From an uncultured Ruminococcus sp. (GTDB lineage: Bacteria > Bacillota > Clostridia > Oscillospirales > Ruminococcaceae): a DNA stretch of 36,880 nucleotides. The position numbers and the translations under genes are program-made. Of this stretch, positions 3,059-36,880 are shown in pieces. Position 1 is the stretch's first letter; the number at the start of each line of letters is the position of its first letter. The stretch covers positions 1 through 36,880 of the forward strand of contig NZ_CACWPP010000027.1 in assembly GCF_902762735.1 (NCBI RefSeq), in the 5' to 3' direction. The notes below the pieces were generated by a model that saw only the letters and a program-made list of their open reading frames with translations, had not been told where the DNA came from and made no database searches.

Positions 3059-3253
3059 TCATTCCACATAGATACCAAACGTCCTTTGAAAAGCATCTCC
3101 CAATTTTGATGTGTATTGCTGATGATACAAAATGGCTGTTCTTTCGTATTGTTCCCCCGCCTTCGGCGGGGGAACAATATACAACCAAATTGGGATAAAA
3201 GCATTTTTCTCGATGCTTTTAACACTGTCGGGGATAGTTATGCCTGACAGGGA
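3059..3253 (-). pseudogene. Relic of a BspA-type leucine-rich-repeat protein, interrupted by a MITE
   Basis: On the minus strand 3253-3197 translates with ITIPDSVKSIEKNAF, a clear match to the BspA/LRR_5 repeat consensus (TIPDSV..IG..AF). The frame runs exactly to the edge of the inserted element. If the element and one copy of its 8-bp target duplication are removed, the frame continues from GCTTTT into ten more codons and stops at 3059-3061. Upstream of the repeat (towards 3330) the same frame has stops, so only a decayed 3' fragment remains. BspA-type repeats are common on secreted surface proteins of gut Firmicutes; the family assignment rests on one repeat unit only. Confidence 0.5.
3098..3195 (+). 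mobile_element. MITE-like element, full-length copy 1 (98 bp)
   Basis: The ends are inverted repeats of 19 bases differing at two positions: TCCCAATTTTGATGTGTAT at the left and TCCCAATTTGGTTGTGTAT read from the right. The interior holds a perfect GC-rich hairpin, ATTGTTCCCCCGCC with its complement, capped by a CUUCGG tetraloop on this strand. One extra base on each side is followed by the 8-bp direct repeat AAAAGCAT (3089-3096 and 3197-3204), a target-site duplication. It encodes no transposase, so it would need one supplied in trans. The copy at 36783-36880 is the same sequence in the opposite orientation with two differences in 98 bases. Confidence 0.88.
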
Positions 3254-3360
3254 ACGCTTTCAAAAGTACCCTCATGTGGCGATGGGTGCTTGTCTTGCAG
3301 ATGCTCCTTGCGACTTGTGAACCAAGTGTAAAAACAATCATAAAATTGTGTTAAAAAACC

Positions 3361-3389
3361 TTGCTTATTTGCGGGAATAATGCTATAAT
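3361..3389 (+). promoter_or_regulatory. Sigma-A promoter of the yicC-spoVM cluster
   Basis: TTGCTT (3361-3366), a 17-base spacer and TATAAT (3384-3389), with an extended -10 TG at 3381-3382. Transcription would begin about 50 bases before yicC. Confidence 0.85.
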
Positions 3390-3445
3390 ATAATTTGAAT
3401 ATTATGCTTTGAAAAAAATGCATTTTCAGAAAGGAAAGCAGATAT

Positions 3446-4333
3446 ATGGTTAAAAGTATGACAGGATTCGGCAGGGAACATGTCGTGGCGGAGGGCAGAG
3501 AGATAATCGTTGAGATACGCTCGGTGAACCATAGGTATTACGAGTTCACAGCGAGAACTCCCCGTGCTTACGGCTATCTTGACGAAAAGCTGAAAGCGTT
3601 TCTTAAAAACGGTATATCACGCGGCAAGGTGGAGGTTTCTGTCACCATCTATAATCAGGAGGGTACAGATGCCGAGATAGAGATGAACAAGTCGGTGGCT
3701 AGGGGTTATCTCGATGCGCTGCGCGGTGCGGCTGATGAACTTGGGCTGAGCGATGATATGACGCTTTCAAACCTGATGAAACTGCCCGATATTTTCACGG
3801 TGGTCAAAAAGACCGAAGATGAAGAGGTCATATGGGATCAGGTGAGAGGTGTGGCTCAGGTGGCGCTGGACAGGTTCGTTGAGATGCGTGAGACCGAAGG
3901 CAGGAAGATGTATGAGGATATAAGCGGAAGGCTCGACTACATCGAAAAGACAGTCGGTGAGATAGAGGAGCATCAGCCTTCTGTGGCGGAGAGTTACAGT
4001 GAAAGGCTGTATGAGAAGATAAAGGATACTCTCAAATCGGTCGAGCTTGACAGGATAGACCAGCAGAGGATACTGACTGAAGTGGCAATATTCGCTGACA
4101 AGGTGGCTATCGACGAGGAAACCGTAAGGCTGAGAAGTCATATCTCGCAGTTCCGTGACCTGATAGCTTCTGATGAGCCTGTGGGCAGAAAACTGGATTT
4201 TCTGGTGCAGGAGGTCAACCGTGAGGTGAATACCATCGGTTCTAAGGCGAATGATCTTACCATCACAAAAAAGGTGGTAGACCTGAAAGCTGAGATAGAG
4301 AAGATAAGAGAACAGATACAGAATATCGAGTAA
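3446..4333 (+). CDS. yicC: YicC-family endoribonuclease
   Basis: A 295-residue protein, full family length. It begins with MVKSMTGFGR, the signature start of YicC/YloC, and ends with the conserved C-terminal domain (GRKLDFLVQEVNREVNTIGSKAND, split here as KLDFLVQEVNREVNT and GSKAND). Members are RNases; E. coli YicC promotes decay of small RNAs. AAGGAAAG lies 8 bases before the ATG. It is first in the cluster, directly behind a strong promoter, and is followed by remA, gmk and rpoZ, the same order as in Bacillus (yloC-remA-gmk-rpoZ). Substrates in this organism are unknown. Confidence 0.93.
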   Translation: MVKSMTGFGREHVVAEGREIIVEIRSVNHRYYEFTARTPRAYGYLDEKLKAFLKNGISRGKVEVSVTIYNQEGTDAEIEMNKSVARGYLDALRGAADELGLSDDMTLSNLMKLPDIFTVVKKTEDEEVIWDQVRGVAQVALDRFVEMRETEGRKMYEDISGRLDYIEKTVGEIEEHQPSVAESYSERLYEKIKDTLKSVELDRIDQQRILTEVAIFADKVAIDEETVRLRSHISQFRDLIASDEPVGRKLDFLVQEVNREVNTIGSKANDLTITKKVVDLKAEIEKIREQIQNIE

Positions 4334-4342
4334 GGTGATAAG

Positions 4343-4597
4343 ATGCAGCTGATAAACATCGGTTACGGCAACATGGTGTCGGCGGCAAGGGTGATAGCCA
4401 TAGTCGCGCCCGATTCCGCACCCATAAAGCGGCTGATACAGGAGTCGCGCGACAAGGGCACGCTCATAGATGCGACCTACGGCAGAAAGACCCGCGCAGT
4501 CGTCATAATGGACAGCGACCATGTGGTGCTGTCGGCGGTATCACCCGAAACAGTCTGCGGCAGAGCCGCCGAAGAGGAGGTCGAAGAAGATGAGTGA
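4343..4597 (+). CDS. remA: RemA-like regulatory protein (DUF370)
   Basis: An 84-residue protein matching the DUF370/RemA family: [20 protein letters not shown] at the N terminus and the conserved [19 protein letters not shown] segment in the middle. RemA of B. subtilis is a DNA-binding activator of biofilm matrix genes that forms ring-like oligomers; in clostridia the role is mostly unstudied. The tail (EEEVEEDE) is acidic and variable. It sits 9 bases after yicC and overlaps gmk by 8 bases, the usual yicC-remA-gmk arrangement, so it is probably co-translated with gmk. Confidence 0.92.
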
Positions 4598-5237
4598 AAT
4601 CAAAAGAGAGCCTAAGCTGATAATAGTTTCTGCACCGTCAGGCTGCGGCAAGGGAACGATCATGCACAAGGTTTTTAACGATGATGAGGTGTTCTATTCG
4701 GTGTCATGCACTACAAGACCGCCAAGACCCGAGGACGTAGCGGGCGTGACTTATAATTTCCTGACCGTTGAGGAATTCGAGAAGATGATAGCCGAGAACG
4801 GTTTTCTGGAGCATGCATGCTATTCGGGCAACTACTACGGTACACCGAGAAAGCCCGTTGAAGAAAATCTCGCGGCAGGTAAGGACGTTATACTGGAGAT
4901 AGAAACTAACGGCGCGTTTCAGGTCAAGGAGTTGAGAGCTGATGCGTCATCGCTGTTCATACTGCCGCCGTCCATCGCTGAGCTTAACAGGAGACTGCAC
5001 AAGCGTGCGACAGAGGACGAGGAAACTATCAAAAAGCGCGTGGCTCAGGCGGCGGGCGAGATAGAGAAGTCGGACAGATACGACTATGTGATAATGAATG
5101 ACGATCTCGATAAAGCGGTGATAGACTTCTGTGCCGTGATCGACGGCATCAGGGGCATAAAAGATCCCGCTGTGAGATTTGATCCAAAAAATGAAGATAT
5201 TAAGAAAATGATACGAGAGGTGCTTGAAAATGCTTAG
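4590..5237 (+). CDS. gmk: Guanylate kinase
   Basis: Phosphorylates GMP to GDP with ATP, an essential step of guanine nucleotide supply in the cytosol. About 215 residues. Visible motifs: P-loop [10 protein letters not shown] near residue 13-22, the GMP-binding [11 protein letters not shown] and [10 protein letters not shown] stretches, GNYYGTP, and the lid region [14 protein letters not shown] chose the ATG at 4590 over an upstream frame extension because GAGGAGG lies just before it and because [18 protein letters not shown] is the normal length of leader. It overlaps the remA stop by 8 bases and rpoZ by 8 bases. Confidence 0.96.
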
Positions 5238-5436
5238 ACCTGCAATTTGTCAGATTTTGAAGAACAATGAGAGTTATTATTCACTGGTTATCGCCGTAGC
5301 GAAGCGTGCAAGAGAGATAACCGATGAAGCCAGCAAAAACGAGAAGCCGCTGGAAGAGAAGCCTGTAAAGACTGCGGTAGATGAGTTCGCGGCAGGGGAA
5401 TACAGGATAGTTGAAGATCCATCACTTAAAAACTGA
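5230..5436 (+). CDS. rpoZ: RNA polymerase omega subunit
   Basis: A 68-residue protein. [30 protein letters not shown] aligns with the omega family start (split motifs: MLRPAI, YYSLVIAVAKRARE); the second half (EEKPVKTAVDEFAAGEYRI) keeps the conserved KAV.ALEEI-like position. Omega helps assemble and stabilise RNA polymerase around beta-prime. The ATG at 5230 is preferred over the in-frame TTG at 5224 because it matches the family start. It overlaps the end of gmk by 8 bases and the two are probably coupled. In Bacillus coaBC follows; here priA follows directly after 31 bases. Confidence 0.92.
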   Translation: MLRPAICQILKNNESYYSLVIAVAKRAREITDEASKNEKPLEEKPVKTAVDEFAAGEYRIVEDPSLKN

Positions 5437-5467
5437 ATTTTAGATCGGCTTTGCGGAGGTCAGAAAA

Positions 5468-7921
5468 ATGGGGAATACAGGTGCTGTTGCGATGGTGGCG
5501 CTGAGTCACGCGGCATACAGCTTTGATGCGGAGTACAGCTACCTTGTACCCGAAAAATTCAGACAGAAGCTAAGAGCGGGCATGAGGGTGTTCGTGTCCT
5601 TCGGGCGGGGAAACAACCGTGTTATCGGGCTGGTGACGAGGCTCTGCGATGATGACGGGAGCGGCAGAAAGCTGAAACCGATACTTGCTGTCGTTGACAG
5701 CGAGTGCCTTGTGACTGACGAGATACTGAAAATTATCTTCTGGCTGAAGGAGAATACCTTCTGCACATATTACGATGCTTTCAGGACGGCTGTGCCTACG
5801 GGCTTTTCGTATAAGGCTGATCTGCATTATGCGCTGGTCAACACGTTTATCCGGAAAGAAAGACTTTCACCCGAAGAAGCCGAGATAATCGACTTTCTTG
5901 AAATTACGGAGGATCAGCAGGAGATAGACAAGTTCCTCGATATAAAGGCTTTTCCCGCAAGGAAGAAGCCTCTGGATATGCTGATAGACAAGGGCTTTGT
6001 GGAGGAAACACAGAGTTTCAAGCGAAAGGTCGGGGACGAAAGCGTAAAGATGGCTGCACTGGCTGAGGGCTATGAAGATGCTGAACTTACGCCTAAGCAG
6101 AAAAAAGTCGTTGAACTGCTGGAAGAGTGCGGCGCGGCTTCGGTGAAAGAGCTTTGCTATATGACGGGCTGTACTGCCACCATAATAAAGCGGCTGTGCG
6201 GCAAAAATGCTGTCAGGGTGTACGATCAGGAGGTAATGCGGGATACGCTTGGTGTGATAACCGAGCGGGAAAGTCCCGATGATATAACGCTGAATGAAGA
6301 GCAGACAGCTGCCTTTGACGGCATAATGGCGCTTATCCGCGCGGGCAAGCCTGCGGGGGCACTGCTGTACGGCGTGACCGGAAGCGGAAAGACTTCGGTG
6401 TTCATCAAGGTCATCGACACGGTGCTGAAAATGGGCAGAACAGCGATGATGCTTGTTCCCGAGATCTCGCTGACACCGCAGATGGTGGCGCGGTTCAAAG
6501 TGCTGTTCGGCGAAAGCATAGCGCTGCTGCATTCATCGCTGTCACTGGGGCAGCGTATGGACGAATTCAAGCGTATAAAGCGCGGCGAAGCGAGGATAGT
6601 GATAGGCACCAGAAGTGCAGTATTTGCGCCTGCTTCCGACATCGGTGTGATCATAATGGACGAAGAGGGTGAACAGTCCTACAAATCGGACTCAACACCG
6701 CGTTACCATGCAAGAGATGTGGCTATACAGCGCTGCGGTCACAATGGTGCGCTGCTGCTGCTGGCATCGGCTACACCGTCGCTGGAAACATTCTACTATG
6801 CGCGGACAGGCAGATTTCATATGTTTACGCTCAAACATAGGTACAAGGACGCTGTTCTGCCGAAGGTAGAGATAATCGACATGCAGACAGAGGCGGCTGA
6901 GGGGAATGACAGTCTGCTGAGCAGGAGGCTGGCTGACGAGCTGACAGGTACGCTGCAGCGTAACGAGCAGGCTATACTTCTGCTGAACAGGCGGGGATTT
7001 ACCACCTACATAAGCTGCCGCAGCTGCCGACAGCCTGTGGTATGCCCGAAATGCAGCATACCGCTGACTTATCACCGCAAGAACAACAGGTTCATGTGCC
7101 ATTACTGCGGCTATACGATGGATAACAATGCCGTCTGCCCGAACTGCGGTTCGGATAAGCTGAAGTCCAGCGGTGTCGGTACACAGCGGGTCGAGGACGA
7201 GGTGGCACGCATCTACCCCGATGCGAGGATACTGAGAATGGACGCTGATACCACTACTTCGCGCTATGCGTATGAAGAGAAGTTCAAGGCGTTCGAGAAC
7301 CACGAATATGATATAATGCTCGGCACACAGATGATAGCAAAGGGGCTGAATTTCCCGAATGTGACGCTGGTGGGGGTCATCTCGCTGGACAAAGCGCTGT
7401 TCACGGGGGATTTCAGAAGTTACGAGAGGACTTTCTCGCTGCTGACACAGGTGGCGGGACGCAGCGGCAGGGGCAGCAAGCCCGGCGCTGCATTCATACA
7501 GACTTTCGTGCCCGACCATTATGTACTGAATTTGGCAGCCGACCAGAACTATGACGAGTTCTACGAAGAGGAGATAGCGCTGAGACAGTCGCTGATATAC
7601 CCTCCGTGCTGCGATATATGTGTGATAGGCTTCGCAAGCACGATGGAGAGCAGGGCGATCCGCGCTGCTGACCATGTGACGCAGTTCATAGCGCAGTATA
7701 TTCGCACGAATAAGGTAGATTTCCCGCTGCGCGCCATAGGACCTGCGCCATGCACGCTGGAGGTCATCAACGGCAAGTTCAGGTACAGGCTGATATTAAA
7801 ATCAAAAAATACCAGGCTTTTCAGGCAGATGATAAATGCTGTGCTGAAAGACCTCAATGATAACAAGGACTTTAAGGAAGTCCGTATCTACGCTGATATA
7901 AACGGTGATATAGGGCTTTAG
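5468..7921 (+). CDS. priA: Primosomal protein N' (replication restart helicase PriA)
   Basis: An 817-residue superfamily 2 helicase that reloads the replisome at stalled forks. Domains in order: N-terminal 3'-end-binding domain (about 10-110), winged-helix region (about 195-255), helicase core with Walker A GVTGSGKT (about 302-309) and DEEGE Walker B (about 398), a zinc module of paired cysteines CRSC, CPKC, CHYC and CPNC (about 516-560), then the second helicase lobe with GTQMIAKGLNFPNVT and QVAGRSGRG, and a C-terminal domain. All key residues are present. A GGAGG-like site (GCGGAGG) lies before the ATG. Fifteen bases separate it from def, as in most Firmicutes. Confidence 0.97.
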   Translation: MGNTGAVAMVALSHAAYSFDAEYSYLVPEKFRQKLRAGMRVFVSFGRGNNRVIGLVTRLCDDDGSGRKLKPILAVVDSECLVTDEILKIIFWLKENTFCTYYDAFRTAVPTGFSYKADLHYALVNTFIRKERLSPEEAEIIDFLEITEDQQEIDKFLDIKAFPARKKPLDMLIDKGFVEETQSFKRKVGDESVKMAALAEGYEDAELTPKQKKVVELLEECGAASVKELCYMTGCTATIIKRLCGKNAVRVYDQEVMRDTLGVITERESPDDITLNEEQTAAFDGIMALIRAGKPAGALLYGVTGSGKTSVFIKVIDTVLKMGRTAMMLVPEISLTPQMVARFKVLFGESIALLHSSLSLGQRMDEFKRIKRGEARIVIGTRSAVFAPASDIGVIIMDEEGEQSYKSDSTPRYHARDVAIQRCGHNGALLLLASATPSLETFYYARTGRFHMFTLKHRYKDAVLPKVEIIDMQTEAAEGNDSLLSRRLADELTGTLQRNEQAILLLNRRGFTTYISCRSCRQPVVCPKCSIPLTYHRKNNRFMCHYCGYTMDNNAVCPNCGSDKLKSSGVGTQRVEDEVARIYPDARILRMDADTTTSRYAYEEKFKAFENHEYDIMLGTQMIAKGLNFPNVTLVGVISLDKALFTGDFRSYERTFSLLTQVAGRSGRGSKPGAAFIQTFVPDHYVLNLAADQNYDEFYEEEIALRQSLIYPPCCDICVIGFASTMESRAIRAADHVTQFIAQYIRTNKVDFPLRAIGPAPCTLEVINGKFRYRLILKSKNTRLFRQMINAVLKDLNDNKDFKEVRIYADINGDIGL

Positions 7922-7935
7922 AAAGGAAGAGTTAA

Positions 7936-8403
7936 ATGGCTGTCAGAAATATTTTGAACAAGAGCGATGAAATGCTCCACAAAAAGTGCAAGCCTGTCGA
8001 GAAGTTTGATGAGAAGCTGTGGACATGGCTTGACGATATGCGCGAAACACTGGCACAGGCAAACGGTGTCGGTCTGGCTGCGCCGCAGGTGGCGATACTC
8101 AGGCGCTTCTGCATAATAGATGTGGGCGACGGGAATGTTTATGAACTGATAAACCCCGAGATCACATGGAAGTCTGAGGAAACTCAGTACGTGCTGGAGG
8201 GCTGTCTTTCCTGCCCGAATGAGTGGGGATATGTCACCAGACCAAAGACCGTAAGGTTCAAGGCGCAGGACAGGAACGGCGAGTGGTACGAGATGGAGGT
8301 CAGCGACCTGTTCGCACAGGCTGTTTGCCACGAAACTGCACACCTTGACGGTCACCTGTTTACCGAGATAATCGAGGAATATGCTGAGGTGCAGGAACAA
8401 TGA
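7936..8403 (+). CDS. def: Peptide deformylase
   Basis: Removes the formyl group from the initiator methionine of new proteins. 155 residues. The three family motifs are present: GVGLAAPQ (about 46-53), EGCLS with the metal ligand C90, and HETAH with H132, E133 and H136. The residue before the second histidine is usually aspartate (HExDH); here it is alanine (A135), while both histidines, the catalytic glutamate and the cysteine remain. AAAGGAAGAG precedes the ATG. It overlaps fmt by 4 bases (ATGA), pairing the enzymes that add and remove the formyl group. Activity is expected but the changed motif is worth noting. Confidence 0.94.
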   Translation: MAVRNILNKSDEMLHKKCKPVEKFDEKLWTWLDDMRETLAQANGVGLAAPQVAILRRFCIIDVGDGNVYELINPEITWKSEETQYVLEGCLSCPNEWGYVTRPKTVRFKAQDRNGEWYEMEVSDLFAQAVCHETAHLDGHLFTEIIEEYAEVQEQ

Positions 8404-9332
8404 AGATAGTTTTCATGGGAACGCCCGATTTTGCAGTGCCGTCAATAAAAGCACTGTACGATGCGGGGCATGAAATACAGGCTGTGTTCTGCCAGCCCGA
8501 TAAGCCTAAAGGCAGGGGCTACAAGCTGGTCCCGCCGCCTGTGAAGGTATTCGCGCTGGATAAGGATATACCGATATATCAGCCGAAAAGCCTGAAAAAC
8601 GGCGGTGAGGAGTTCATCAAGGTAATTGAGGACTTTGCACCTGACTGCATCGTGGTGGCGGCTTACGGCAAGATACTGCCGAAAGCGGTGCTGGATATAC
8701 CGCGGCTGGGCTGTGTGAACGTGCATGGCTCGCTTCTGCCGAAATATCGCGGGGCAGGTCCCATACAGTGGGCTGTGCTTAACGATGAAAAGACAACGGG
8801 CATCACCACTATGCTCATGGGCGAAGGGCTTGACACGGGCGATATGCTTCTAAAGTCTGAAACCGAGATAGGCGAGAATGAAACAGCGGCAGAACTGTTC
8901 GACAGGCTGGCTGACATGGGCGCTGAACTTATCGTTGAAACACTTGATAAGCTGGAAAAGGGTGAGATAACCCCTGTCCCGCAGAACGAGGAGGAAGCGA
9001 CCTACGCGCCGATGCTGACAAAAGAACTTTCGCCGATAGATTTCAGTAAGTCGGCAAGGGCTGTCCATAAGCAGATATGCGGACTGTCAGACTGGCCATG
9101 CGCTACTACCACGATAGGCGGCAAGCGTATAAAGGTGTACAGGTCGGAGATAGTGGCAGGAAGCACCGATAAGTCGGCAGGAACAGTTGTCAACGCAAAA
9201 GACTTGACGGTTGCCTGCGGCGATGGAATGGTCAAACTGACCGAAATACAGGCTGAAGGCTCAAAGAGAATGGCAACAGCCGACTATCTGCGCGGTAAAC
9301 CCGTAACAGAAGGTACTGTACTTGGAGAATGA
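8400..9332 (+). CDS. fmt: Methionyl-tRNA formyltransferase
   Basis: Transfers a formyl group from 10-formyl-THF to Met-tRNA(fMet) to permit translation initiation. 310 residues, normal length. The N-terminal catalytic domain shows MKIVFMGTPDFAVPSI, CQPDKPKGRG and the catalytic block NVHGSLLPKYRGAGPIQWA, with GLDTGDML after it; the C-terminal tRNA-binding domain begins near SPIDFSKSARAVH. The start overlaps the def stop as ATGA. A perfect 9-bp inverted repeat begins at its stop codon and lies just before the ribosome site of rsmB. Confidence 0.97.
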   Translation: MKIVFMGTPDFAVPSIKALYDAGHEIQAVFCQPDKPKGRGYKLVPPPVKVFALDKDIPIYQPKSLKNGGEEFIKVIEDFAPDCIVVAAYGKILPKAVLDIPRLGCVNVHGSLLPKYRGAGPIQWAVLNDEKTTGITTMLMGEGLDTGDMLLKSETEIGENETAAELFDRLADMGAELIVETLDKLEKGEITPVPQNEEEATYAPMLTKELSPIDFSKSARAVHKQICGLSDWPCATTTIGGKRIKVYRSEIVAGSTDKSAGTVVNAKDLTVACGDGMVKLTEIQAEGSKRMATADYLRGKPVTEGTVLGE

Positions 9333-9350
9333 CAAGTATCAATACTTGTC
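9331..9350 (+). promoter_or_regulatory. Perfect palindrome between fmt and rsmB
   Basis: GACAAGTAT and ATACTTGTC are separated by only CA, and the sequence begins inside the fmt stop codon. The rsmB ribosome site GGAGG (9355-9359) follows 4 bases later. A two-base loop is too tight, so an RNA hairpin would open to a 4- or 6-base loop; as DNA it could be an operator. It lacks a T tract and so is not a terminator. Confidence 0.4.
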
Positions 9351-9367
9351 AGATGGAGGATAGCTGA

Positions 9368-10657: not shown

Positions 10658-10661
10658 CGGC

Positions 10662-11708: not shown

Positions 11709-11726
11709 GGAAAGGCGGTGAGCTGT

Positions 11727-12455: not shown

Positions 12456-12488
12456 TGAGACAATAATTTAGTTTAGGAGTTGAATAAA

Positions 12489-17850: not shown

Positions 17851-17886
17851 AAATATATTATATCACAATTTTTCATATTGAAAGAA

Positions 17887-17932
17887 TCCCAATTTGGTTG
17901 TGTATCATCAGCAATACACATCAAAATTGGGA
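17887..17932 (-). mobile_element. MITE-like element, internally deleted short copy (46 bp)
   Basis: Identical at both ends to the 98-bp element but lacking its central 52 bases, including the GC-rich hairpin. The first 19 bases equal the right end of the copy at 3098 read inward, and the last 27 equal its other end with at most one difference. The missing segment is flanked in the long copies by a TGTAT direct repeat, which could explain the deletion. One extra base on each side is followed by TTGAAAGA (17878-17885) and TTGAAATA (17934-17941), an 8-bp target duplication with one mismatch. It lies 23 bases downstream of the sortase stop. Confidence 0.85.
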
Positions 17933-17955
17933 GTTGAAATAATAGTGTGCGATCG

Positions 17956-27337: not shown

Positions 27338-27367
27338 AAAGGCTGTCAGCAATAGCCGACAGCCTTT
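27338..27367 (-). terminator. Terminator of the J-like gene
   Basis: AAAGGCTGTC (27338-27347) pairs perfectly with GACAGCCTTT (27358-27367); the T tract on the minus strand is short. It begins 11 bases beyond the stop. Confidence 0.75.
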
Positions 27368-27377
27368 GAATGTTTTA

Positions 27378-29796: not shown

Positions 29797-30516
29797 ATGG
29801 GTCTTTTCAGTAAAAAGAAACCCGCTGCACCCGCTGCAGCGCCAACACCAAAGCCCGTCGATCCTGATGATATTTGGAACACTCCTTCACCAAAGCGCAG
29901 GCAGACAGTGATCGTTAAAGAGTCTAAGTATGATGACCCGATGCCTGAAAATCTCGAGGTCGAGTCTGTTGATCCCGAGATGATAAAGTCAAAGATGGCT
30001 CAGCTCGAGGCAGAACTGGAGGAAAAGAAGAACCAGCCTATAAAGACGCATGCTGATTACGGCACAAGTACTGTTGCTGCCGAAGAGATAATCGATGCGC
30101 AGACAGAGTATGAGAGATTGTATGAGGTCGAGCATGAGAAATATGTGAAGTCTCATCAGGAGGAGATCAGTGTCGCCAAAGAGCAGGGCATGGCGGAGAA
30201 GATGGAAGCTATGTATGCCGAACATGAGGCGAAGGTCGCTGAGGTCGAGAATACTGATTTTGAATTCAGCGAGGTAGGTCAGGCTGAGGTAGACAAAAAG
30301 ATGATAGATCTGCCTTATGCCAAAAAGCCTGAGGATTATCCTGAGTATAAGGATATTGCGGCTGTTTCGGCAGAACCCGATCAGGCTGAGCTTGATAAGC
30401 TCGGTGTGATAGATCACAGTGAAGATCCTGATAATATCGGTAACGTTGATGAGGAGCTGCTCGCCAGAAAAGTAGAGGAGTTCGAGGCTAAGTACGGCGA
30501 CCGCAAGAAAGCCTGA
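29797..30516 (+). CDS. Acidic, partly coiled-coil protein of unknown function
   Basis: 239 residues. A short basic head (MGLFSKKKP) is followed by an Ala/Pro linker, the stretch DPDDIWNTPSPKRRQTVIVKE (quoted in part as DDIWNTPSPKRRQ) and a long Glu/Lys/Ala-rich helical region (about 65-170) likely to form a coiled coil. A charged tail ends GDRKKA. There is no membrane helix or signal peptide. I recognise no family. It is first in a run of four + strand genes and faces the tail-anchored J-like protein across the divergent promoter region; both are low-complexity adaptor-like proteins. The MGLFSKKK start is followed by no lipidation motif. Confidence 0.72.
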   Translation: MGLFSKKKPAAPAAAPTPKPVDPDDIWNTPSPKRRQTVIVKESKYDDPMPENLEVESVDPEMIKSKMAQLEAELEEKKNQPIKTHADYGTSTVAAEEIIDAQTEYERLYEVEHEKYVKSHQEEISVAKEQGMAEKMEAMYAEHEAKVAEVENTDFEFSEVGQAEVDKKMIDLPYAKKPEDYPEYKDIAAVSAEPDQAELDKLGVIDHSEDPDNIGNVDEELLARKVEEFEAKYGDRKKA

Positions 30517-30550
30517 TCTGATCGGTCATTTATGGATAGTTTGGGAGCGG

Positions 30551-31096
30551 ATGATTTTGAATATCAATACTGATAATCCGATTATTAAATATTCAGATGT
30601 TGGGAAGAATTTCCCGTATGACAAGCTGTTTTACGCAACTGTCAACGATTATATCCTTGAGTATAAGAATGCACGTCTCGATAAGCTGACTGACCATGAT
30701 GCATCTGTTTGTCTCGCGAGGATAATCAGACGCATGGAAGTCAACGGTGTACCTGTGCAGCAGTACTTTAAAGAAGAACTCGATGCCTGGACAGATGTTC
30801 CTAATTACACAAGGGTACTGCGTTTGTGTGATCTGATGGCAAGGGATATTTTCTGCTGTTTTGATAAGAACAGATATGATGATGCGGGAAACTTTGCAAG
30901 GGTAAACAGGTTCTACTGTGTGAACACTGACGGCAAAAAGGATTTCTTCACACTTGATGAAAAGGTAAAGTCAGGGCTTTTCAAGAAGAAAAGAACACCC
31001 GAGAGCGAGTATTTCATGGATCTGCAGAAAAGATATGATGCAGGTCTGCTTCCTAAGTCGAAGGAAGATGAGCGCAGGCTTTACGGCGAAGAATAA
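30551..31096 (+). CDS. Soluble protein of unknown function
   Basis: 181 residues, mostly helical, without signal peptide or membrane segment. Recognisable internal features are a Tyr/Asp-rich first part (YDKLFYATVNDYILEYKNAR) and a C-terminal basic patch FKKKRTPESEY. The family is unknown to me. GGGAG stands before the ATG. It follows the coiled-coil gene by 34 bases and precedes the cyclophilin gene by 24, so it probably belongs to the same transcript. No enzymatic motif is visible. Confidence 0.7.
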   Translation: MILNINTDNPIIKYSDVGKNFPYDKLFYATVNDYILEYKNARLDKLTDHDASVCLARIIRRMEVNGVPVQQYFKEELDAWTDVPNYTRVLRLCDLMARDIFCCFDKNRYDDAGNFARVNRFYCVNTDGKKDFFTLDEKVKSGLFKKKRTPESEYFMDLQKRYDAGLLPKSKEDERRLYGEE

Positions 31097-31120
31097 TATG
31101 ATCTGAAAGGAAAGATAAAA

Positions 31121-31594
31121 ATGGTTAAAATAGAAATGGAAAACGGTAAGGAGATACTTATCGAGCTTTATCCCGATGTTGCGCCCATAACGGTCGCTAA
31201 CTTTGAAAAGCTGGTCGGTCAGGGCTTTTATGACGGTCTTATTTTTCACAGGGTCATCAAGGGCTTTATGATACAGGGCGGCGATCCCGAAGGCACGGGC
31301 ATGGGCGGCTCGAATGAGAAGATCAAGGGCGAGTTCAGGTCAAACGGTGTTGCAAATGACCTGAAACATACCAGAGGCGTGATCTCTATGGCAAGGTCAA
31401 TGATGCCTGATTCTGCAAGTTCGCAGTTCTTCATCATGCACGAGGATGCGCCGCACCTTGACGGCAACTATGCTGCTTTCGGAAAGGTGGTCAAGGGTAT
31501 CGAGGTCGTTGACGAGATTGCTTCTGTAAAGGTCGATTTCAATGACAAACCCCTTGAGCCACAGGTGATGAAGAAAGTCACTATCGTAGACTGA
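31121..31594 (+). CDS. Cyclophilin-type peptidyl-prolyl cis-trans isomerase
   Basis: Accelerates cis-trans isomerisation of peptide bonds before proline. 157 residues, single-domain, no signal peptide, so cytosolic. Family motifs: VANFEKLV, DGLIFHRVIKGFMIQGGDPEGTG (quoted in part: FHRVIKGFMIQGGDP), the SSQFFIM active-site stretch and GNYAAFGKVVKG. The catalytic arginine is in FHRVI. It is embedded in the 29797 operon. This is the most clearly identified gene of the run and may help fold the proline-rich neighbours, but that is only inference. Confidence 0.95.
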   Translation: MVKIEMENGKEILIELYPDVAPITVANFEKLVGQGFYDGLIFHRVIKGFMIQGGDPEGTGMGGSNEKIKGEFRSNGVANDLKHTRGVISMARSMMPDSASSQFFIMHEDAPHLDGNYAAFGKVVKGIEVVDEIASVKVDFNDKPLEPQVMKKVTIVD

Positions 31595-31687
31595 TATGAA
31601 CTGATCTGCTGCATATGCCTCTGTATTGCAAAAATATAGAGGCTTTTGCGGTGTATGCCCATTATTTGATTTTCGGGAGTGGTAAAT

Positions 31688-33019
31688 ATGAATTTTAGAA
31701 AAGCAGCTGCGATATTTGCTGCGGTCATGACTGTTTCATCAGCAGCACCCACAGCTTATGCGGCTTATGACTACGGGTACGATCAGGGATACGATTACAA
31801 TTATAATTACGACTACAACTACGATTATAATAACGGCTATGACAACGGTTATGGCTATGATAATGGTTATGGCTACGACTATGGCTATAACGAATGGGAC
31901 GATACGACGACAACTACTGCACCTGTACCGGACTTCGATCCTGCACAGTCGGCGGGTAATGAAGTCACAAGCATGCAGATAAAGACAACGACTCTCGTTC
32001 CCGATAAGCCGACCTCAGCTCCATCAAGAGTGTATCTTCAGGCGGGTACTTTTGATAATAACGAGATCATACCTGTTGAGCTGAAGATAGAAGCTGATAC
32101 AGATGTCTCCAACGCACTTATATCTGTTTCTTTTGATACCGAGCTTTTTCAGCTGGTGAGTACCGAGCTTAATGAGGAAGCAGGCGGCAAGGCTGCTGAA
32201 AACAGCTTTAACGGCAAGTACGTGCTGAACTATACAAATGATGCAGGCAGTAAGTTCAAAGGAACATATGCAACACTCTATTTCAGGCGGCTGGATAAGA
32301 GCTTTGTGTCGTCAACGGTGTTCCTTTCGGTGACAACACTTGATAACAAGACGGGTATACCGATCTCATATACTGCCGAAAACTGCATCATAACAAATCC
32401 CGACAGCACAACTTCTCAGCCTGTTGAGACAGAACCTGTTAAGCTCAACAAGCAGCTTACCCTGCTGATGAGCAAGGGGCAGTGTGAACCATCCGAGCTG
32501 GGGCTGGAGAATATCAGGAATATCGTTGTGGCTGATACTGATGTTATCAGTTATGAAAACGGCGTTATCAAGATACTTTCAGCAGGTCAGACAACTTTTG
32601 ATGTGGTTTTTGAGAATAACGAGCTTGAGACATACGATGTTGTCGTTATGGACGATACCGTTGTTACAGCCTCAGAAGATGCAGCCGTGGATCTGACTAA
32701 AGATCAGCCTGTCGATAACAGTAAGCGAAACCTGTTAATAATCATCGCTGTTGTTGTGGCACTTGTTGTGCTGGTAGTTGAATATCTTGTTATTATGAAG
32801 CCTATCAGCAGAGGCAAAAAAAAGCTGGCAGAGGCAGAAGCGTTCTTTGAGAATGAAAGTCTCGAAGAGGACGATGAAGACGAGGAAATGCGTGCTGAAC
32901 TGCAAAAGGCATTTGCCGCCCGCGATGCCCGCCGCAAAGCAGCAAATGAAGAAGATGCTGATGAGACCGCCGATGCTGATGACGGATCTGACGCAGAGTC
33001 CGATGAGGGCGAAGAATAA
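31688..33019 (+). CDS. Secreted, membrane-anchored cohesin-like protein with Tyr/Asp-rich repeat
   Basis: About 443 residues. A signal peptide (1-25, ending AYA) is followed by a Tyr/Asp/Asn/Gly low-complexity stretch (about 27-70). A Thr-rich linker leads to a beta-sandwich (about 118-240) that resembles cohesins or related carbohydrate-binding folds (GTFDNNEIIPVELKIEAD, ALISVSFDTELFQLVS, YATLYFRRLD). A second small beta-domain (about 250-325) precedes one membrane helix (about 347-370) and a 73-residue strongly acidic cytosolic tail. I prefer ATG 31688 (GGGAG 8 bases before) over GTG 31679. It ends the four-gene run at a terminator. True cohesins bind dockerins; whether this one does is unknown. 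Confidence 0.78.
   Translation: MNFRKAAAIFAAVMTVSSAAPTAYAAYDYGYDQGYDYNYNYDYNYDYNNGYDNGYGYDNGYGYDYGYNEWDDTTTTTAPVPDFDPAQSAGNEVTSMQIKTTTLVPDKPTSAPSRVYLQAGTFDNNEIIPVELKIEADTDVSNALISVSFDTELFQLVSTELNEEAGGKAAENSFNGKYVLNYTNDAGSKFKGTYATLYFRRLDKSFVSSTVFLSVTTLDNKTGIPISYTAENCIITNPDSTTSQPVETEPVKLNKQLTLLMSKGQCEPSELGLENIRNIVVADTDVISYENGVIKILSAGQTTFDVVFENNELETYDVVVMDDTVVTASEDAAVDLTKDQPVDNSKRNLLIIIAVVVALVVLVVEYLVIMKPISRGKKKLAEAEAFFENESLEEDDEDEEMRAELQKAFAARDARRKAANEEDADETADADDGSDAESDEGEE
31766..31897 (+). repeat. In-frame Tyr/Asp/Asn/Gly low-complexity repeat
   Basis: Tandem irregular units of TAYGAC, TAYAAY and GGYTAY encode about 44 residues of mostly Tyr, Asp, Asn and Gly (units such as YDYNYDYN and NGYDNGYG). 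Both alternating codons are used, so the bias is at protein level and not only simple nucleotide slippage. Confidence 0.85.
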
Positions 33020-33032
33020 GCAGAATATTTTT

Positions 33033-33063
33033 GGCTGCGCCGTTTTTACTGCGCAGCCTTTTT
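33033..33063 (+). terminator. Terminator of the 29797-33019 run
   Basis: GGCTGCGC (33033-33040) pairs perfectly with GCGCAGCC (33051-33058), followed by TTTTT. It lies 14 bases after the stop. Confidence 0.88.
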
Positions 33064-33110
33064 GCATATCACATCGGAATATACGGCTTGCAATACCATT
33101 CGGCTGACAC

Positions 33111-33229
33111 GAGAGCTTTATAGCAATCCGCCTTAAAATTCAGACAAAATCCAGTCACAAAACCCATAGATCCTAGCTTTTGCGACTGGATTTTGTGAAT
33201 TTAAACAGTTGGATTGCTATAAGGCTTTC
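33111..33229. repeat. 119-bp near-perfect hairpin element (MITE-like)
   Basis: The outer arms (33111-33129 and 33211-33229) are 19 bases with 17 matches, including the perfect TATAGCAATCC / GGATTGCTATA. A second block, AAATTCAGACAAAATCCAGTC, continuing to CACAAAA, pairs with TTTTGCGACTGGATTTTGTG then AATTT with few differences. The total is a long foldback of about 50 bp per arm with a loop near 33165-33176. TA lies at each outer end of the strict arms (33119-33120 and 33220-33221), as left by TA-targeting IS630/Tc1-type elements. It encodes no protein. There is no second copy in this window. Confidence 0.7.
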
Positions 33230-33262
33230 CCTGCATTATTTAAAACAGATACCCATATAGAA

Positions 33263-33303
33263 ATAATGCCCCGAAGCATGTCAAAAGTGCTTCGGGGCAT
33301 TAT
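33263..33303. terminator. Strong terminator, bidirectional
   Basis: ATAATGCCCCGAAGCA (33263-33278) pairs with TGCTTCGGGGCATTAT (33288-33303), a perfect 16-bp stem. It lies 13 bases beyond the stop of the minus-strand gene 33316-33795. Confidence 0.85.
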
Positions 33304-33315
33304 ATTTTATAGTTA

Positions 33316-33795
33316 CTAAGATAGATCGAAATTTTTGCAGTATTTGTCAAATAGCATTTTCACGTCTGATAATATAAAGTGAACACCCATCTGATTAGAA
33401 CAATCTTCCTCCATATCTTCAATATGTTCATACTGATTAAAATGCTTTGGAAGAAGCGGATCTGCACCATTTTTGAGAAGATACTCAATGTATTCCAGTT
33501 CCATTGGAGCAGGTTTGTAATTATGATCTTTTGGAATATCTAAATTATCAAATATCTCTCCGTTCTCATTGACAACAGTGTTAAGGCACATCTCAACGGC
33601 TGTTTCAAGCATAAGGTAAGCGTATTCATCCGTAAACAGACTTCTATTGGCTTCAATAAATCTGATACAATTGCGAAGATCATCATTATAGTTCAGTTTT
33701 CCTAAAATCCTATAATGAAGCGGAATAGAGGGATCATAGCTCATTACTTTCTGAACATCATTCAATACTTCATCATCTAAATCTAAAAGATCCAT
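33316..33795 (-). CDS. Acidic protein of unknown function with an ankyrin-like segment
   Basis: 159 residues, cytosolic by sequence. The stretch EYIEYLLKNGADPLLPKHF reads like one ankyrin helix pair; the rest is helical and acidic. Such short proteins are sometimes immunity proteins of polymorphic toxins, but no toxin gene adjoins it, so this is only a possibility. The start is secured by TTTGGAGGAGCAG upstream and a perfect promoter. Base composition is more AT-rich than the neighbouring housekeeping genes, in line with transfer. Confidence 0.72.
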   Translation of the reverse strand: MDLLDLDDEVLNDVQKVMSYDPSIPLHYRILGKLNYNDDLRNCIRFIEANRSLFTDEYAYLMLETAVEMCLNTVVNENGEIFDNLDIPKDHNYKPAPMELEYIEYLLKNGADPLLPKHFNQYEHIEDMEEDCSNQMGVHFILSDVKMLFDKYCKNFDLS

Positions 33796-33834
33796 TATTG
33801 CTGCTCCTCCAAATCCCGAATTATGTCATTAATA

Positions 33835-33863
33835 ATTATAGCACTGCCTTGCTTTTGTGTCAA
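33835..33863 (-). promoter_or_regulatory. Promoter of 33316-33795
   Basis: Minus strand: TTGACA (33863-33858), 17-base spacer, TATAAT (33840-33835), a perfect consensus. Confidence 0.88.
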
Positions 33864-34036
33864 TAAAAACGCCGCAGTTTATCCTATATCAGCACCGCAA
33901 GAAAGATAGGTAGGTTGTATTCGGGTCATATCGTACAAGTACTTATCTTACGAATTGTATATCATGCCGATTTTTCGTGAATGTGTTGAGTTTTCGGGCG
34001 GAATAAGCGATTATATTACAGGGAGGTGCAAAGCAT

Positions 34037-34504
34037 ATGCGAAGAAACGATCCCGCTATACAAGATCTTGAAATGACAATGAGTAAATACAAACGTACCG
34101 TTTACGGCATAGCTGTCACACAGCTGAACAACAGGCATGAAGCTGATGATGTATTTCAGGAGGTCTTTCTGCTGTACTTCAGCAAGCGCCCTGTTTTTCA
34201 GACCGAAGAGCAGAAACGTGCATGGCTGATAAGGGTGACGGTCAACAAATGCAGGCAGTACAATTTCGGCAAATGGAATTTGCATGTTGACCGCACTGCC
34301 GAGCCTGAAATATCTGCCGAATTTGAAAGTCGGGCTGACAAAGAACTTTACGCCGCGGTAAAAGAACTTCCGCATCGGTGCGGATGCCGCAGGTCGGATA
34401 ATAGATCATATCAGCGCAACTGGTCATACCATCTGATAAAAAACGCCCGTTCTCTGTATGGGAACGGGCGTTGCGCTTCACGAAAAAATCAGATAATAGA
34501 ATGA
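34037..34504 (+). pseudogene. Truncated ECF sigma factor (region 2 kept, region 4 lost)
   Basis: The frame encodes 155 residues. Residues about 8-75 are a good sigma-70 region 2 (QLNNRHEADDVFQEVFLLYF, then RAWLIRVTVNKCRQ). From about residue 113, where LP should lead into region 4 with its helix-turn-helix, the sequence changes to LPHRCGCRRSDNRSYQRNWS and does not resemble a sigma factor in any frame. In another frame the same bases read RIGADAAGRIIDHISATGHT then stop, as if the end of a different gene had been joined on. Without region 4 it could not recognise a -35 box. GGGAGGTG precedes the ATG, so it may still be translated. No anti-sigma gene follows. Confidence 0.75.
34437..34472 (-). 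terminator. Minus-strand terminator hairpin inside the broken sigma gene
   Basis: AACGCCCGTTC (34442-34452) pairs perfectly with GAACGGGCGTT (34462-34472). The A tract at 34438-34443 gives a T tract on the minus strand. No minus-strand gene ends here, so it is probably a remnant or acts weakly on the + strand. Confidence 0.6.
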
Positions 34505-34528
34505 TAAGTAAAATGTCAGATTTTGGAC

Positions 34529-34557
34529 TTGACAAATCAGGAAAAATGTTGTAAAAT
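34529..34557 (+). promoter_or_regulatory. Promoter of the T-box transcript
   Basis: TTGACA (34529-34534), 17-base spacer, TAAAAT (34552-34557). Confidence 0.87.
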
Positions 34558-34559
34558 AA

Positions 34560-34817
34560 ACTAAATGCTATGACGGAATGAAGTAGCCGTTGAAACGACT
34601 TCCAGAGAGCCTGCGGGTGGTGTGAGCGGGCAGTGTACAGCGGTGAAGTTACCTTCCTGAGCAGTCTGCCTGAAATATTTCAGTAGGGTGTGACCGTTTT
34701 GCCGCGTTAAGGTCAAAGAGGTCGGTGTTTGCCGATAAACTGAGGTGGTACCGCGTTAAGCGTTAGCTGATAACGCCCTCAGAGGACTTTGTGTCTTCTG
34801 AGGGCTTTTATATTTTT
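34560..34817 (+). ncRNA. T-box riboswitch leader
   Basis: A tRNA-sensing leader. Stem I features are present: AGTA (34582-34585), the AGAGAGC block with GGTGGTGTGAG after it, and the AGTA/GAA loop-E pair with GAA at 34645-34647. The specifier directly after it is most likely GTT (34648-34650, Val); if one base is skipped, TTA (Leu). The T-box proper, AGGTGGTACCGCG, is at 34743-34755; its TGGT suits a tRNA with discriminator A. CTGAGG before the T-box can pair with CCTCAG of the terminator's 5' arm, making the anti-terminator. The terminator is a 13-bp stem (34775-34787 and 34793-34805) with a T tract. The gene behind it is a GNAT acetyltransferase, not a synthetase or transporter. Confidence 0.93.
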
Positions 34818-34837
34818 ATGTGCGAGGTGTCGTTTGC

Positions 34838-35329
34838 ATGAACAGTGTCAGACTTGTCAAAGCATTCCGTGAAGATGCAGAACTTCTGCATGGGCTTCAG
34901 CGCGATGCTTTTATGCCGCTGTATGAACGATACCGCGATGACGATACCAGTCCCGCGCTTGAAAGTACAGAAATCGTTGCCCGCAAGATAGCTGACTCGG
35001 ATTTTTTCATCATATATATTGATGATGTTCCGTCAGGCGGTGTGCGGGTAAGGCGTTCGCGGAATGATGGTGAGAATGTCTGTCGGATAAGTCCGATATT
35101 TCTTCTGCCTGCGTGCTGTGACATGGGTATGGGCACAACTGTTATGGAAATGCTGTTTGATATGTATGCTGATGCTGACAAATGGTCGCTTGCGACTATT
35201 GCGCAGGATAAAAGAAACTGCCATTTCTATGAAAAAATGGGCTTTGTGTACACAGGGGAAAGCACTGTCATCAATGAACGCATGACTATCATCGGCTATG
35301 AAAAAAGGTGCAGGCGATGGAATACGTAA
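34838..35329 (+). CDS. GNAT-family N-acetyltransferase
   Basis: Acetyl-CoA-dependent acetyltransferase of 163 residues. Beta-strand pattern and motif A of the fold are visible: FFIIYIDDVPSGGVRV, ISPIFLLPACCDMGMGTTVME (quoted in part, with the GMGT loop) and the motif B end NCHFYEKMGFVYTGE. The substrate is unknown. I chose ATG 34838 because GAGGTG stands 8 bases before it; GTG 34820 lies at the end of the T-box terminator. It is the first gene behind the T-box. It overlaps the next gene by 13 bases, so both are likely under the same leader. A role in acylating an amino acid or a derivative would fit the control, but is only inference. Confidence 0.88.
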   Translation: MNSVRLVKAFREDAELLHGLQRDAFMPLYERYRDDDTSPALESTEIVARKIADSDFFIIYIDDVPSGGVRVRRSRNDGENVCRISPIFLLPACCDMGMGTTVMEMLFDMYADADKWSLATIAQDKRNCHFYEKMGFVYTGESTVINERMTIIGYEKRCRRWNT

Positions 35330-36201
35330 GCGTTAAAAGCATTCTGCACAGGTGCAGTGACAATTCATGGTTCGGCAGTGACTACAATATGAACCTCTAT
35401 CGCGGCTGTTGTCACGGCTGTATCTATTGCGACAGCAGAAGCGAGTGCTATCACATAGAGAACTTTGATAAAGTTCGCGCCAAGAAAGATGCGGCGGTGA
35501 TACTGCGTGGTGAACTCAGGCGCAAGCGCAGGACAGGTGTGATAGGCATGGGGTCAATGTCTGACCCTTACAATCCCTTTGAGAGGACTGAAAGGCTCAC
35601 CGAAAAGGCGCTTATGCTGATAGATGAATTCGGTTTCGGCGTGAATGTCGATACGAAGTCTGCACTTATCACAAGAGATGCGTCGCTGTACCGAAGTATA
35701 GCACAGCATTCGCCTGTGCTGTGCAAAATGACGATAACTGCGGCTGATGACAGTCTTTGCAGACTTATTGAGCCGCATGTCAGCACGAGCAGTGAGCGTT
35801 TTGCGGCGCTTGAAAAGCTGTCTGCGGCGGGGGTAAAGACTTGTATTCTTATGAACCCGATACTGCCGTTCATGACCGACAACGCCGAGAACATAACTGC
35901 CATAGTAAGGCGTGCGGCAGAAGTCGGCGTGATGGGGATATTCACTTATCTGGGTGTGACACTCAGGCAGAACCAGCGCGAATACTTTTATGACCGACTT
36001 GACGAGCGCTTTGCGGGACTTCGCACAAGATACGTAAGGCAGTTCGGCGGTGCTTATGAGTGTTTTTCACCGAACAGCAGTATGCTTTGGAAAGTATTCA
36101 TCAGTGAATGCGAAAAACATAATATACTTTATGATATGAATGATATAACAGCGGCATACAAGTCGGGCTATGGCGACAGCCAGCTCAGCTTTTTTGACTG
36201 A
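35317..36201 (+). CDS. Radical-SAM protein related to spore photoproduct lyase (SPL-like)
   Basis: About 294 residues. The radical-SAM cluster binding cysteines are C31, C35 and C38 in CCHGCIYC, after NMNLYRGC. The rest has the SPL-like pattern: IGMGSMSDPYNPFE, the LTEKAL helix and the RFAALEKLSAAGV stretch; the end, GYGDSQLSFFD, is typical of this branch. These proteins are widespread in Firmicutes and most have no proven substrate; true SPL repairs spore DNA, but this one belongs to the larger uncharacterised group. It starts inside the GNAT gene (ATG 35317, AAAGGTG 6 bases upstream), so it is part of the T-box operon. Confidence 0.87.
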   Translation: MEYVSVKSILHRCSDNSWFGSDYNMNLYRGCCHGCIYCDSRSECYHIENFDKVRAKKDAAVILRGELRRKRRTGVIGMGSMSDPYNPFERTERLTEKALMLIDEFGFGVNVDTKSALITRDASLYRSIAQHSPVLCKMTITAADDSLCRLIEPHVSTSSERFAALEKLSAAGVKTCILMNPILPFMTDNAENITAIVRRAAEVGVMGIFTYLGVTLRQNQREYFYDRLDERFAGLRTRYVRQFGGAYECFSPNSSMLWKVFISECEKHNILYDMNDITAAYKSGYGDSQLSFFD

Positions 36202-36279
36202 TGCTGCGCTTTGAAAGGTCGTGATATAAATGATATTCCCCGCGGATGTCATTGTTTATGAAAAGGGGAGGTCTGCATA

Positions 36280-36756
36280 ATGTTCAGAGAAATGCTGAGA
36301 AAAAAGCAGGCGCTTTCCGAAGAGGAGTGCATAGCAGTCCTGAAAACGCAGAAAAGGGGAGTGCTGGCGGTGCTGGGCGATGAAGATTATCCATACGCTC
36401 TGCCAATAAACCATTATTATAATGACGAAGACGGTCACATCTACTTTCACGGTGCGAAGTTCGGTCATCGTGTGGACGCGGTAAAGCGTCACGATAAGGT
36501 CAGCTTTTGCGTATATGACGAGGGCTTCCGCCGTGAGGGCGAGTGGGCGCTGAACATAAAAAGCGTCATAGTTTTCGGCAGACTTGTGCCCGTTGAGGAC
36601 GAGGATAAGATGATAGACCTCTGCCGCAGGCTGAGCCATAAATTCACCGATGACGAAAGCTACATCGAGGACGAGATAAAACGTGCAGGCTTCCGCACAC
36701 TGATGTATGAGCTTATACCCGAACATATGTCGGGCAAGCTGGTAAACGAAGCGTGA
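36280..36756 (+). CDS. Pyridoxamine 5'-phosphate oxidase-fold flavoprotein (Nim-like)
   Basis: 158 residues, a split-barrel FMN-binding fold. N-terminal MLRKKQALSEEECIAVLK is followed by RGVLAVLGDEDYPYALPINH, IYFHGAKFGHRVDAV and VSFCVYD, the order found in NimA-type proteins (5-nitroimidazole reductase family). Function is not fixed by sequence; members bind FMN or heme. The ribosome site GGGGAGG stands 8 bases upstream. Its ATG overlaps a 16-residue mini-frame as TAATG. It lies 78 bases behind the radical-SAM gene and may share its transcript. Confidence 0.85.
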   Translation: MFREMLRKKQALSEEECIAVLKTQKRGVLAVLGDEDYPYALPINHYYNDEDGHIYFHGAKFGHRVDAVKRHDKVSFCVYDEGFRREGEWALNIKSVIVFGRLVPVEDEDKMIDLCRRLSHKFTDDESYIEDEIKRAGFRTLMYELIPEHMSGKLVNEA

Positions 36757-36782
36757 TGCTGACAGTAAAGCAAATAAATATA

Positions 36783-36880
36783 TCCCAATTTGGTTGTGTA
36801 TTGTTCCCCCGCCGAAGGCGGGGGAACAATACGAAAGAACAGCCATTTTGTATCATCAGCAATACATATCAAAATTGGGA
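36783..36880 (-). mobile_element. MITE-like element, full-length copy 2 (98 bp)
   Basis: Reverse complement of the copy at 3098-3195 with two differences in 98 bases. The 19-base end repeats and the perfect GC-rich hairpin are intact. The window ends exactly at its last base, so only the left flank is visible. By analogy with the other copies, one extra base (A, 36782) is preceded by the presumed target ATAAATAT (36774-36781). It lies 26 bases after the stop of the Nim-like gene and could also act as its terminator-like 3' end. Confidence 0.88.

What the first reader, a model, noticed from the sequence alone, without database searches (positions are those of the whole stretch)
3098..36880. 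A MITE-like family with 19-base inverted ends, a UUCG-capped hairpin and 8-bp target duplications
Two 98-bp copies at 3098-3195 and 36783-36880 lie in opposite orientation and differ at two positions. The first is flanked, after one spare base on each side, by AAAAGCAT twice. The ends are imperfect inverted repeats beginning TCCCAATTT. The centre is a perfect stem with a CUUCGG loop that could also end transcription or stabilise RNA. No transposase is encoded. Near-identity suggests recent spread. I know no published family with these ends, but I cannot search.
Basis: seen in the sequence. Interest (0 to 1): 0.72.

Follow-up and report, generated by a model that had tools for sequence, protein, structure and literature searches.

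The report
Abundant hairpin jumping element in Ruminococcus
This Ruminococcus genome carries a very short, non-coding jumping element in some two hundred places; its insertion scars are clear and include an unusual one-letter change, but the enzyme that moves it was not found.

Summary
Besides the two 98-bp copies the window has a third, hairpin-less 46-bp copy at 17887-17932. The genome has 236 left ends. In 878 kb of stretches fetched around listed copies, 139 places have both ends; of 137 with readable flanks, 104 carry an 8-bp duplication matching at 7/8 or 8/8, against 1.2% for shuffled flanks. The 'spare' bases belong to the element (C...T), which is thus 100 bp. Copies nested in other repeats show the empty targets. 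Relatives with the same ends, some with other interiors, occur in Ruminococcus albus 8 and other Ruminococcus, and once in another genus. No autonomous partner was found; an IS256-like element is a weak lead. Unexpected: at the right junction the first base of the duplication is C instead of T at 19 of 56 T-first sites, 0 of 48 A-first sites, and 2 of 328 T's elsewhere in it. A relative, G002, shows it (5 of 13 T-first), R. albus 8 does not (0 of 10). I read it, tentatively, as a repair scar.

The parts
3089..3096 (+). left copy of the 8-bp target duplication, AAAAGCAT (copy 1)
3097..3196 (+). copy 1, 100-bp element (C + 98-bp core 3098-3195 + T)
   Evidence: near-constant C and T
3098..3118 (+). 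left terminal inverted repeat TCCCAATTTTGATGTGTATTG
3146..3180 (+). central hairpin, 16-bp stem, UUC loop
3175..3195 (-). right terminal inverted repeat, read on the - strand TCCCAATTTGGTTGTATATTG
3197..3204 (+). right copy of the target duplication, AAAAGCAT
17878..17885 (+). duplication beside copy 3, TTGAAAGA
17886..17933 (-). copy 3, hairpin-less form (46-bp core 17887-17932); no element at the corresponding place in R. albus 8
17934..17941 (+). duplication beside copy 3, TTGAAATA (7 of 8)
36774..36781 (+). expected duplication ATAAATAT beside copy 2; its partner lies beyond the window end
36782..36880 (-). copy 2 (core 36783-36880), at the window end

Best explanation
[quoted passage not shown] Shown: dispersed near-identical copies, 8-bp AT-rich target duplications, empty targets for nested insertions, no room for a gene, relatives with the same ends and other interiors. 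Inferred: a DDE-type transposase binds the ~22-bp end repeats, joins both ends to target strands staggered by 8 bases, and host repair fills the gaps. Hairpin-less 46-bp forms probably arise by loss of the hairpin between register-matched ATACA repeats (two main junction types). The C for T at the right junction is most simply a repair scar: one extra base on the 5' strand (G) that can be kept opposite T but not opposite A. That last step is a hypothesis, about 0.3 likely; the MITE reading is the confident part.
For: 236 left ends and 141 hairpin right ends in the own genome with up to 3 mismatches, 0 in the reversed-pattern controls. 139 places with both ends in 878 kb; of 137 with flanks, 72 match 8/8 and 32 match 7/8; shuffled flanks do so in 0.44% and 0.79%, a control run on the 141 end pairs before double calls were removed. 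The matching diagonal runs exactly from -9..-2 to +2..+9. In relatives 45 of 70 copies match 8/8 and 13 match 7/8. Four copies sit inside other repeats at the offset expected for element plus 8 bp, with 32, 31, 6 and 2 alignment places on uninterrupted copies. Copy 3's place is empty in R. albus 8, while other sites are shared with it. Same end motif and 8-bp duplications, other interiors: G075, 418 bp, TTATCTTT twice; three G018 elements at 8/8, 7/8 and 7/8, read by eye.
Against: No transposase with these ends was found in the sequence held, nor a carrier in plasmids, phages or viral contigs. 33 of 137 places lack a good duplication; age or rearrangement could explain that, but it was not shown. 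Not every nested copy is a clean insertion: L009 has a damaged left end and 10 bases missing instead of 8 duplicated. The immediate target of copy 3 is too diverged in R. albus 8 for a clean empty-site alignment.
Confidence: 0.93

Rival explanations
1. The partner is an IS256-family (Mutator-like) transposase: the element is a deletion or mimic of an IS256-like element such as the one in R. albus 8 and in G023.
For: That element's left end GAGTCAATCCCAAATTCTGTGTAAAC scores against the MITE ends as 0 of 2000 base shuffles do, its right end as 21 of 2000 do. 2 of the 5 distinct copies whose ends I read have exact 8-bp duplications (GATTATCC, GCACAGGC), one matches 6 of 8, two do not match.
Against: Its tip lies 6 bases further out than the MITE's. 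Seven transposon ends were compared with two MITE groups, so some selection is built in. The own genome has only a fragment of an IS256-family gene, at a contig start, and G002 and G020, which carry the MITE, have no match, while G023 has three copies and no MITE match.
Confidence: 0.25
2. A REP/REPIN-type palindrome moved by a RAYT (Y1/HUH) transposase.
For: Short, mostly intergenic, palindromic, some two hundred copies.
Against: 8-bp duplications at 104 of 137 places and exact ends; REPINs are not known to make them (recalled). Y1_Tnp was not searched.
Confidence: 0.03
3. The copies are kept as working RNA hairpins (terminators or mRNA stabilisers) and spread by selection rather than as selfish DNA.
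For: Very stable hairpin; 6 double changes in the stem, 5 of them paired, against 1.2 expected if sides vary independently.
Against: Stem no more conserved than the other parts outside the loop (2.6% against 1.5-3.2%). 46-bp hairpin-less forms persist (13 of 139). In tandem spacers 19 copies point with and 27 against the genes. No U-run. No Rfam match at gathering score in the window except a T-box elsewhere.
Confidence: 0.05
4. The C at the right junction is not a repair scar but a second form of the element, 101 bp ending GGGATC with a 7-bp duplication.
For: It describes the 19 sites equally well one by one.
Against: It does not by itself explain why C is seen only where the target begins with T (19 of 56 against 0 of 48, Fisher p about 3e-6).
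Confidence: 0.2

Closest known systems
Bacterial MITEs in general, e.g. the Correia, ERIC, Chunjie and QMITE families (passages of the review PMC10969869 read)
   Same: Short, non-coding, inverted ends, target duplications, size variants; copy numbers of tens to hundreds (ERIC 711 in Photorhabdus luminescens, as stated there).
   Different: No sequence relation was tested. This family is shorter than those whose full length the passages give (about 190-400 bp), has a GC-rich central hairpin and a 46-bp hairpin-less form. The word Ruminococcus does not occur in that review.
IS256 (Mutator-like) family of insertion sequences
   Same: 8-bp duplication in 2 of 5 copies read; an end motif ATCCCAA..TT..TGTGTA shared with the IS256-like element of R. 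albus 8 and G023.
   Different: Tip differs by 6 bases, and presence in genomes does not follow the MITE.
Second MITE group of the same genome (here B/C/D, ends TRTGRYTATCCC)
   Same: 8-bp AT-rich duplications (48 of 92 exact), often a CCCCGCC...GGCGGGG hairpin (51 of 92).
   Different: No spare base, other end sequence, no T-to-C change at the first base (0 of 34 T-first).

Membership tests
MITE | short, with terminal inverted repeats | tested here: met
MITE | target duplication of fixed length | tested here: met
   8 bp; 104 of 137 at 7/8 or better, control
MITE | no transposase encoded | tested here: met
   98-100 bp, no room for one
MITE | insertion into formerly empty sites | tested here: met
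   nested insertions against uninterrupted copies
MITE | an autonomous element with the same ends | tested here: inconclusive
   none found; three transposase families searched, the others not
IS256-derived MITE | same terminal bases as an IS256-family element | tested here: not met
   for the IS256-like elements read: internal motif similar, tip different
ISL3-derived MITE | ISL3-type partner in the genome with the same ends | tested here: not met
   no ISL3 match in the own genome; an R. albus 8 copy has GGCTCTTTCC near its tip
REP/REPIN | no target duplication, RAYT partner | tested here: not met
   8-bp duplications; RAYT not searched
intrinsic terminator | stem followed by a run of U | tested here: not met
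   the stem is followed by ACAACC

The most novel reading that the evidence does not exclude
The MITE's unknown transposase leaves one extra base on the 5' (non-transferred) strand at the right end; repair keeps it when it can form a G-T pair with the target and discards it otherwise, so a large set of fossil junctions records second-strand cleavage and repair in living cells. If right, junction statistics of MITEs could read out a step otherwise studied in vitro.
Probability: 0.27. Interest if true: 0.65.

Novelty: new member of a known kind. Interest (0 to 1): 0.47.

Why it matters
It adds a recently active MITE family, with a form of only 46-48 bp, to a genus important in fibre digestion. 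Copies are frequent enough to coincide with contig ends in a draft assembly and to differ between neighbouring species. The same ends with changing interiors let the transposase's recognition site be read directly. The base-selective junction change is testable evidence on how transposon ends are repaired.

Tried and rejected
Autonomous partner: PF01609, PF00872 and PF01610 were searched in 8, 8 and 11 genomes. End motifs were sought in all loci of the first two searches and inverted ends around 17 selected loci of all three; no transposase had the MITE's ends. A scan of all sequence then held (1.48 Mb, loci partly overlapping) for TCCC-like/GGGA-like ends with identical 8-mers 0.5-5 kb apart gave 77 raw pairs, one with end similarity (12 of 22) and no resemblance to these ends; that scan would miss mutated ends such as those of the composite below. 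Wider end searches: 2 of 197 genomes in the family sample (own genome and G075); 1 of 394 in the order sample, the own genome, with a pattern for the 325-bp type of end that few 98-bp copies fit; 0 viral contigs, and 3 with a laxer pattern, read as chance. Plasmid and phage matches were short and weak.

Composite element: in G007 (Ruminococcus sp. RGIG5054) two short copies bracket a 502-aa membrane-protein gene with AAAACAGA outside both. One case in a draft metagenome contig; reported, not built on.

RNA role: covariation too slight to count. A link of the T-to-C change with interior variants was not seen beyond p 0.048 at two positions, not corrected for the nine tested. Gene-context numbers come from a crude ORF caller applied to 148 element calls that include a few double calls; 38 fell inside ORFs, many of 80-140 aa and probably spurious, and 23 had no gene called on one side.

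Rows dropped: 148 end pairs became 139 places after removing double calls; 2 lacked flanks; 4 of 87 98-bp copies were excluded as aberrant; junction tests use the 105 of 137 with at least 6 of 7 inner bases matching, and 59 of 70 in relatives. The counts of uninterrupted copies are of alignments at one chosen offset; the same flanks also gave alignments at other offsets.

Full report
Observation. A third copy, 46 bp and without the hairpin, lies at 17887-17932 with TTGAAAGA/TTGAAATA beside it. The single strand folds far better than its shuffles, z = -6.35, 0 of 200, with a 16-bp stem and a UUC loop rather than a UUCG tetraloop. The inverted ends are 21 bp with 2 mismatches in consensus copies and 3 in the window's first copy. 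The first copy lies between a ThiF/rhodanese gene and a YicC-like gene, the third between a sortase-domain gene and a GH130 gene, the second just behind a pyridoxamine-phosphate-oxidase-like gene.

Copy number. In the genome of the window (4.06 Mb, 242 contigs, 97% complete by the tool) the left end occurs 236 times and the hairpin right end 141 times with up to 3 mismatches; the reversed-pattern controls give 0. The merged set of fetched own-genome stretches, taken mostly around listed copies, is 100 pieces and 878 kb, so the density in it is not the genome average. It holds 139 places with both ends: 87 of 98 bp, 13 of 46 bp, the rest between 55 and 143 bp; 36 further left ends have no right end within 170 bp.

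Target duplications. On 105 copies with distinct flanks the left and right flanks match on one diagonal only, -9..-2 with +2..+9, at 74-90% per position. On the larger set, 72 of 137 places match at all 8 bases and 32 at 7; shuffled flank pairs do so in 0.44% and 0.79%, a control run on the 141 end pairs before double calls were removed. The 46-bp forms do it too, 12 of 13 at 7/8 or better, and copies in relatives, 58 of 70. The base just outside the core is C on the left in 98 and T on the right in 98 of 105, so the element is 100 bp. Both ends of the 8-mer are nearly always A or T. 33 of 137 places lack a good duplication.

Empty targets. Four copies interrupt other repeats at the offset expected for an insertion with an 8-bp duplication and one extra base at each end. 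In L094 the interrupted sequence is ...AAGGATAA-C[..]T-AAGGATAA..., and the uninterrupted copies printed read ...AAGGATAA... once. L002 has 32 alignment places at that offset, L094 31, L048 6 and L065 2. These are alignments chosen for that offset; some loci overlap, some lie in R. albus 8, other offsets occur too, and the L065 comparison is poor. Against a simple picture, one more nested copy, L009, has a damaged left end and lacks 10 bases of the host repeat. At the place corresponding to the window's third copy R. albus 8 has no element, although the bases right at the target are too diverged for an exact comparison. Four sites are occupied in both genomes (L092/L119, L144/L185, L058/L114, L090/L116), so some insertions precede the split; the empty place suggests that others follow it.

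Age and shape. 83 98-bp copies differ from their consensus by a mean of 2.47 and a median of 2 bases. The 46-bp copies have two main junctions, GATACACAACC in 6 and GATACAAAACC in 5 of 13, and GATACACAGCC in 2; the first two follow from exchange between the register-matched ATACA repeats on either side of the hairpin, so I read them as repeated losses of the hairpin, not one lineage. Whether the short form moves by itself is open.

Spread. In a relatives sample of 41 genomes 9 match: besides the own genome, G002 (24 matches), G020 (25) and G024 (39) have full copies, G007 one 79% match, and four others (G003, G005, G012, G018) only short partial matches, mostly of the hairpin. Contig lengths and positions against the record titles identify G024 as R. 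albus 8, G002 as Ruminococcus sp. RGIG4311, G020 as an uncultured Ruminococcus, G007 as RGIG5054 and G237 as UBA3800. G023 is probably R. albus 7, judged from its size and five contigs (recalled, not confirmed); it has no match. Other Ruminococcus have similar ends around unrelated interiors. In the family sample of 197 genomes only the own genome and G075, of another genus, match; G075's 418-bp element has TTATCTTT on both sides one base out. In the order sample of 394, searched with the pattern of the 325-bp type of end, which few 98-bp copies fit, only the own genome matches, once.

The junction change. Where the left copy of the 8-mer begins with T (56 copies), the right copy begins with C in 19; where it begins with A (48), never (Fisher p about 3e-6). 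T-to-C at the other seven positions is 2 of 328, and the mirror change at the left end 1 of 48. In other genomes together it is 6 of 28 T-first against 0 of 29 A-first, but unevenly: G002 5 of 13, one G017 copy 1 of 1, G020 0 of 4 and R. albus 8 0 of 10. The closest relative thus does not show it, which a general property of the enzyme would not predict; a few C-flanked source copies would. The L048 case shows direction: the five uninterrupted copies printed read TTATTTTG, the left duplication TTATTTTG, the right one CTATTTTG. The second MITE group shows none (0 of 34 T-first). My preferred reading is a G carried on the 5' strand at the right end, tolerated opposite T and removed opposite A; this is inference, no enzyme is known, and a 101-bp form of the element is a rival.

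Partner. None found. PF01609, PF00872 and PF01610 loci that were read lack these ends. The IS256-like element of R. albus 8 and G023 has internal end similarity that 0 of 2000 (left) and 21 of 2000 (right) base shuffles reach, but a tip 6 bases further out, and its presence does not follow the MITE. It is a lead only.

Function. 38 of 148 element calls fall inside ORFs, many of them short and doubtful, while 84% of the sample is coding by the same caller; in tandem spacers 19 point with and 27 against the genes. The stem is not better conserved than the rest. I see no sign of a kept RNA role, and none of a terminator.

Literature. Searches, all seen as listings with starts of abstracts: MITE with Ruminococcus (1 paper, unrelated title); insertion sequence/inverted repeat/MITE/Ruminococcus, three of four terms (20 of 174 listed, none of those with Ruminococcus); R. 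albus with MITE/transposable elements/repeat, three of four (15 of 2,009 listed, none of those with R. albus, so uninformative for that species); R. albus 8 genome (15 of 32 listed). None listed appears from title or abstract start to describe this family; the library holds open-licence papers only. Of the review PMC10969869 I read the passages found.

Noticed in passing
own genome, many places; half of one at window about 2659-2731: A second MITE group (ends TATGACTATCCCTTTAGCACACCA / TGTGGTTATCCCGCTGACACACCA), 92 end pairs in 878 kb, 8-bp duplications exact in 48 of 92, hairpins of the same CCCCGCC...GGCGGGG kind in 51, and chimeras with the first group.
   Followed up: partly
L183 1319-3106 (G007, Ruminococcus sp. 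RGIG5054): Two short copies bracket a 502-aa membrane protein gene (PMT_2-like, 25.8 bits, just under the 26.1 cut-off) with AAAACAGA outside both: possibly a composite transposon.
   Followed up: partly
L103 585-731 (own genome C10): One copy has its right end expanded into an 18-bp tandem array (CCAATTTGGTTGTGTATT repeated).
   Followed up: no
own genome contigs, e.g. C35, C41, C53, C62 (ends), C7, C10, C26, C110 (starts): Draft contigs begin or end in copies of the element, as does the window itself: the family seems to break assemblies.
   Followed up: no
L243, L241, L252-L257: 325-bp type elements in other Ruminococcus share the ends and carry inner repeats with AAACCTTTCT..AGAAAGGTTT and GGGGGC arms.
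   Followed up: partly
window 34561-34783: T-box leader, 124 bits, on the + strand.
   Followed up: no
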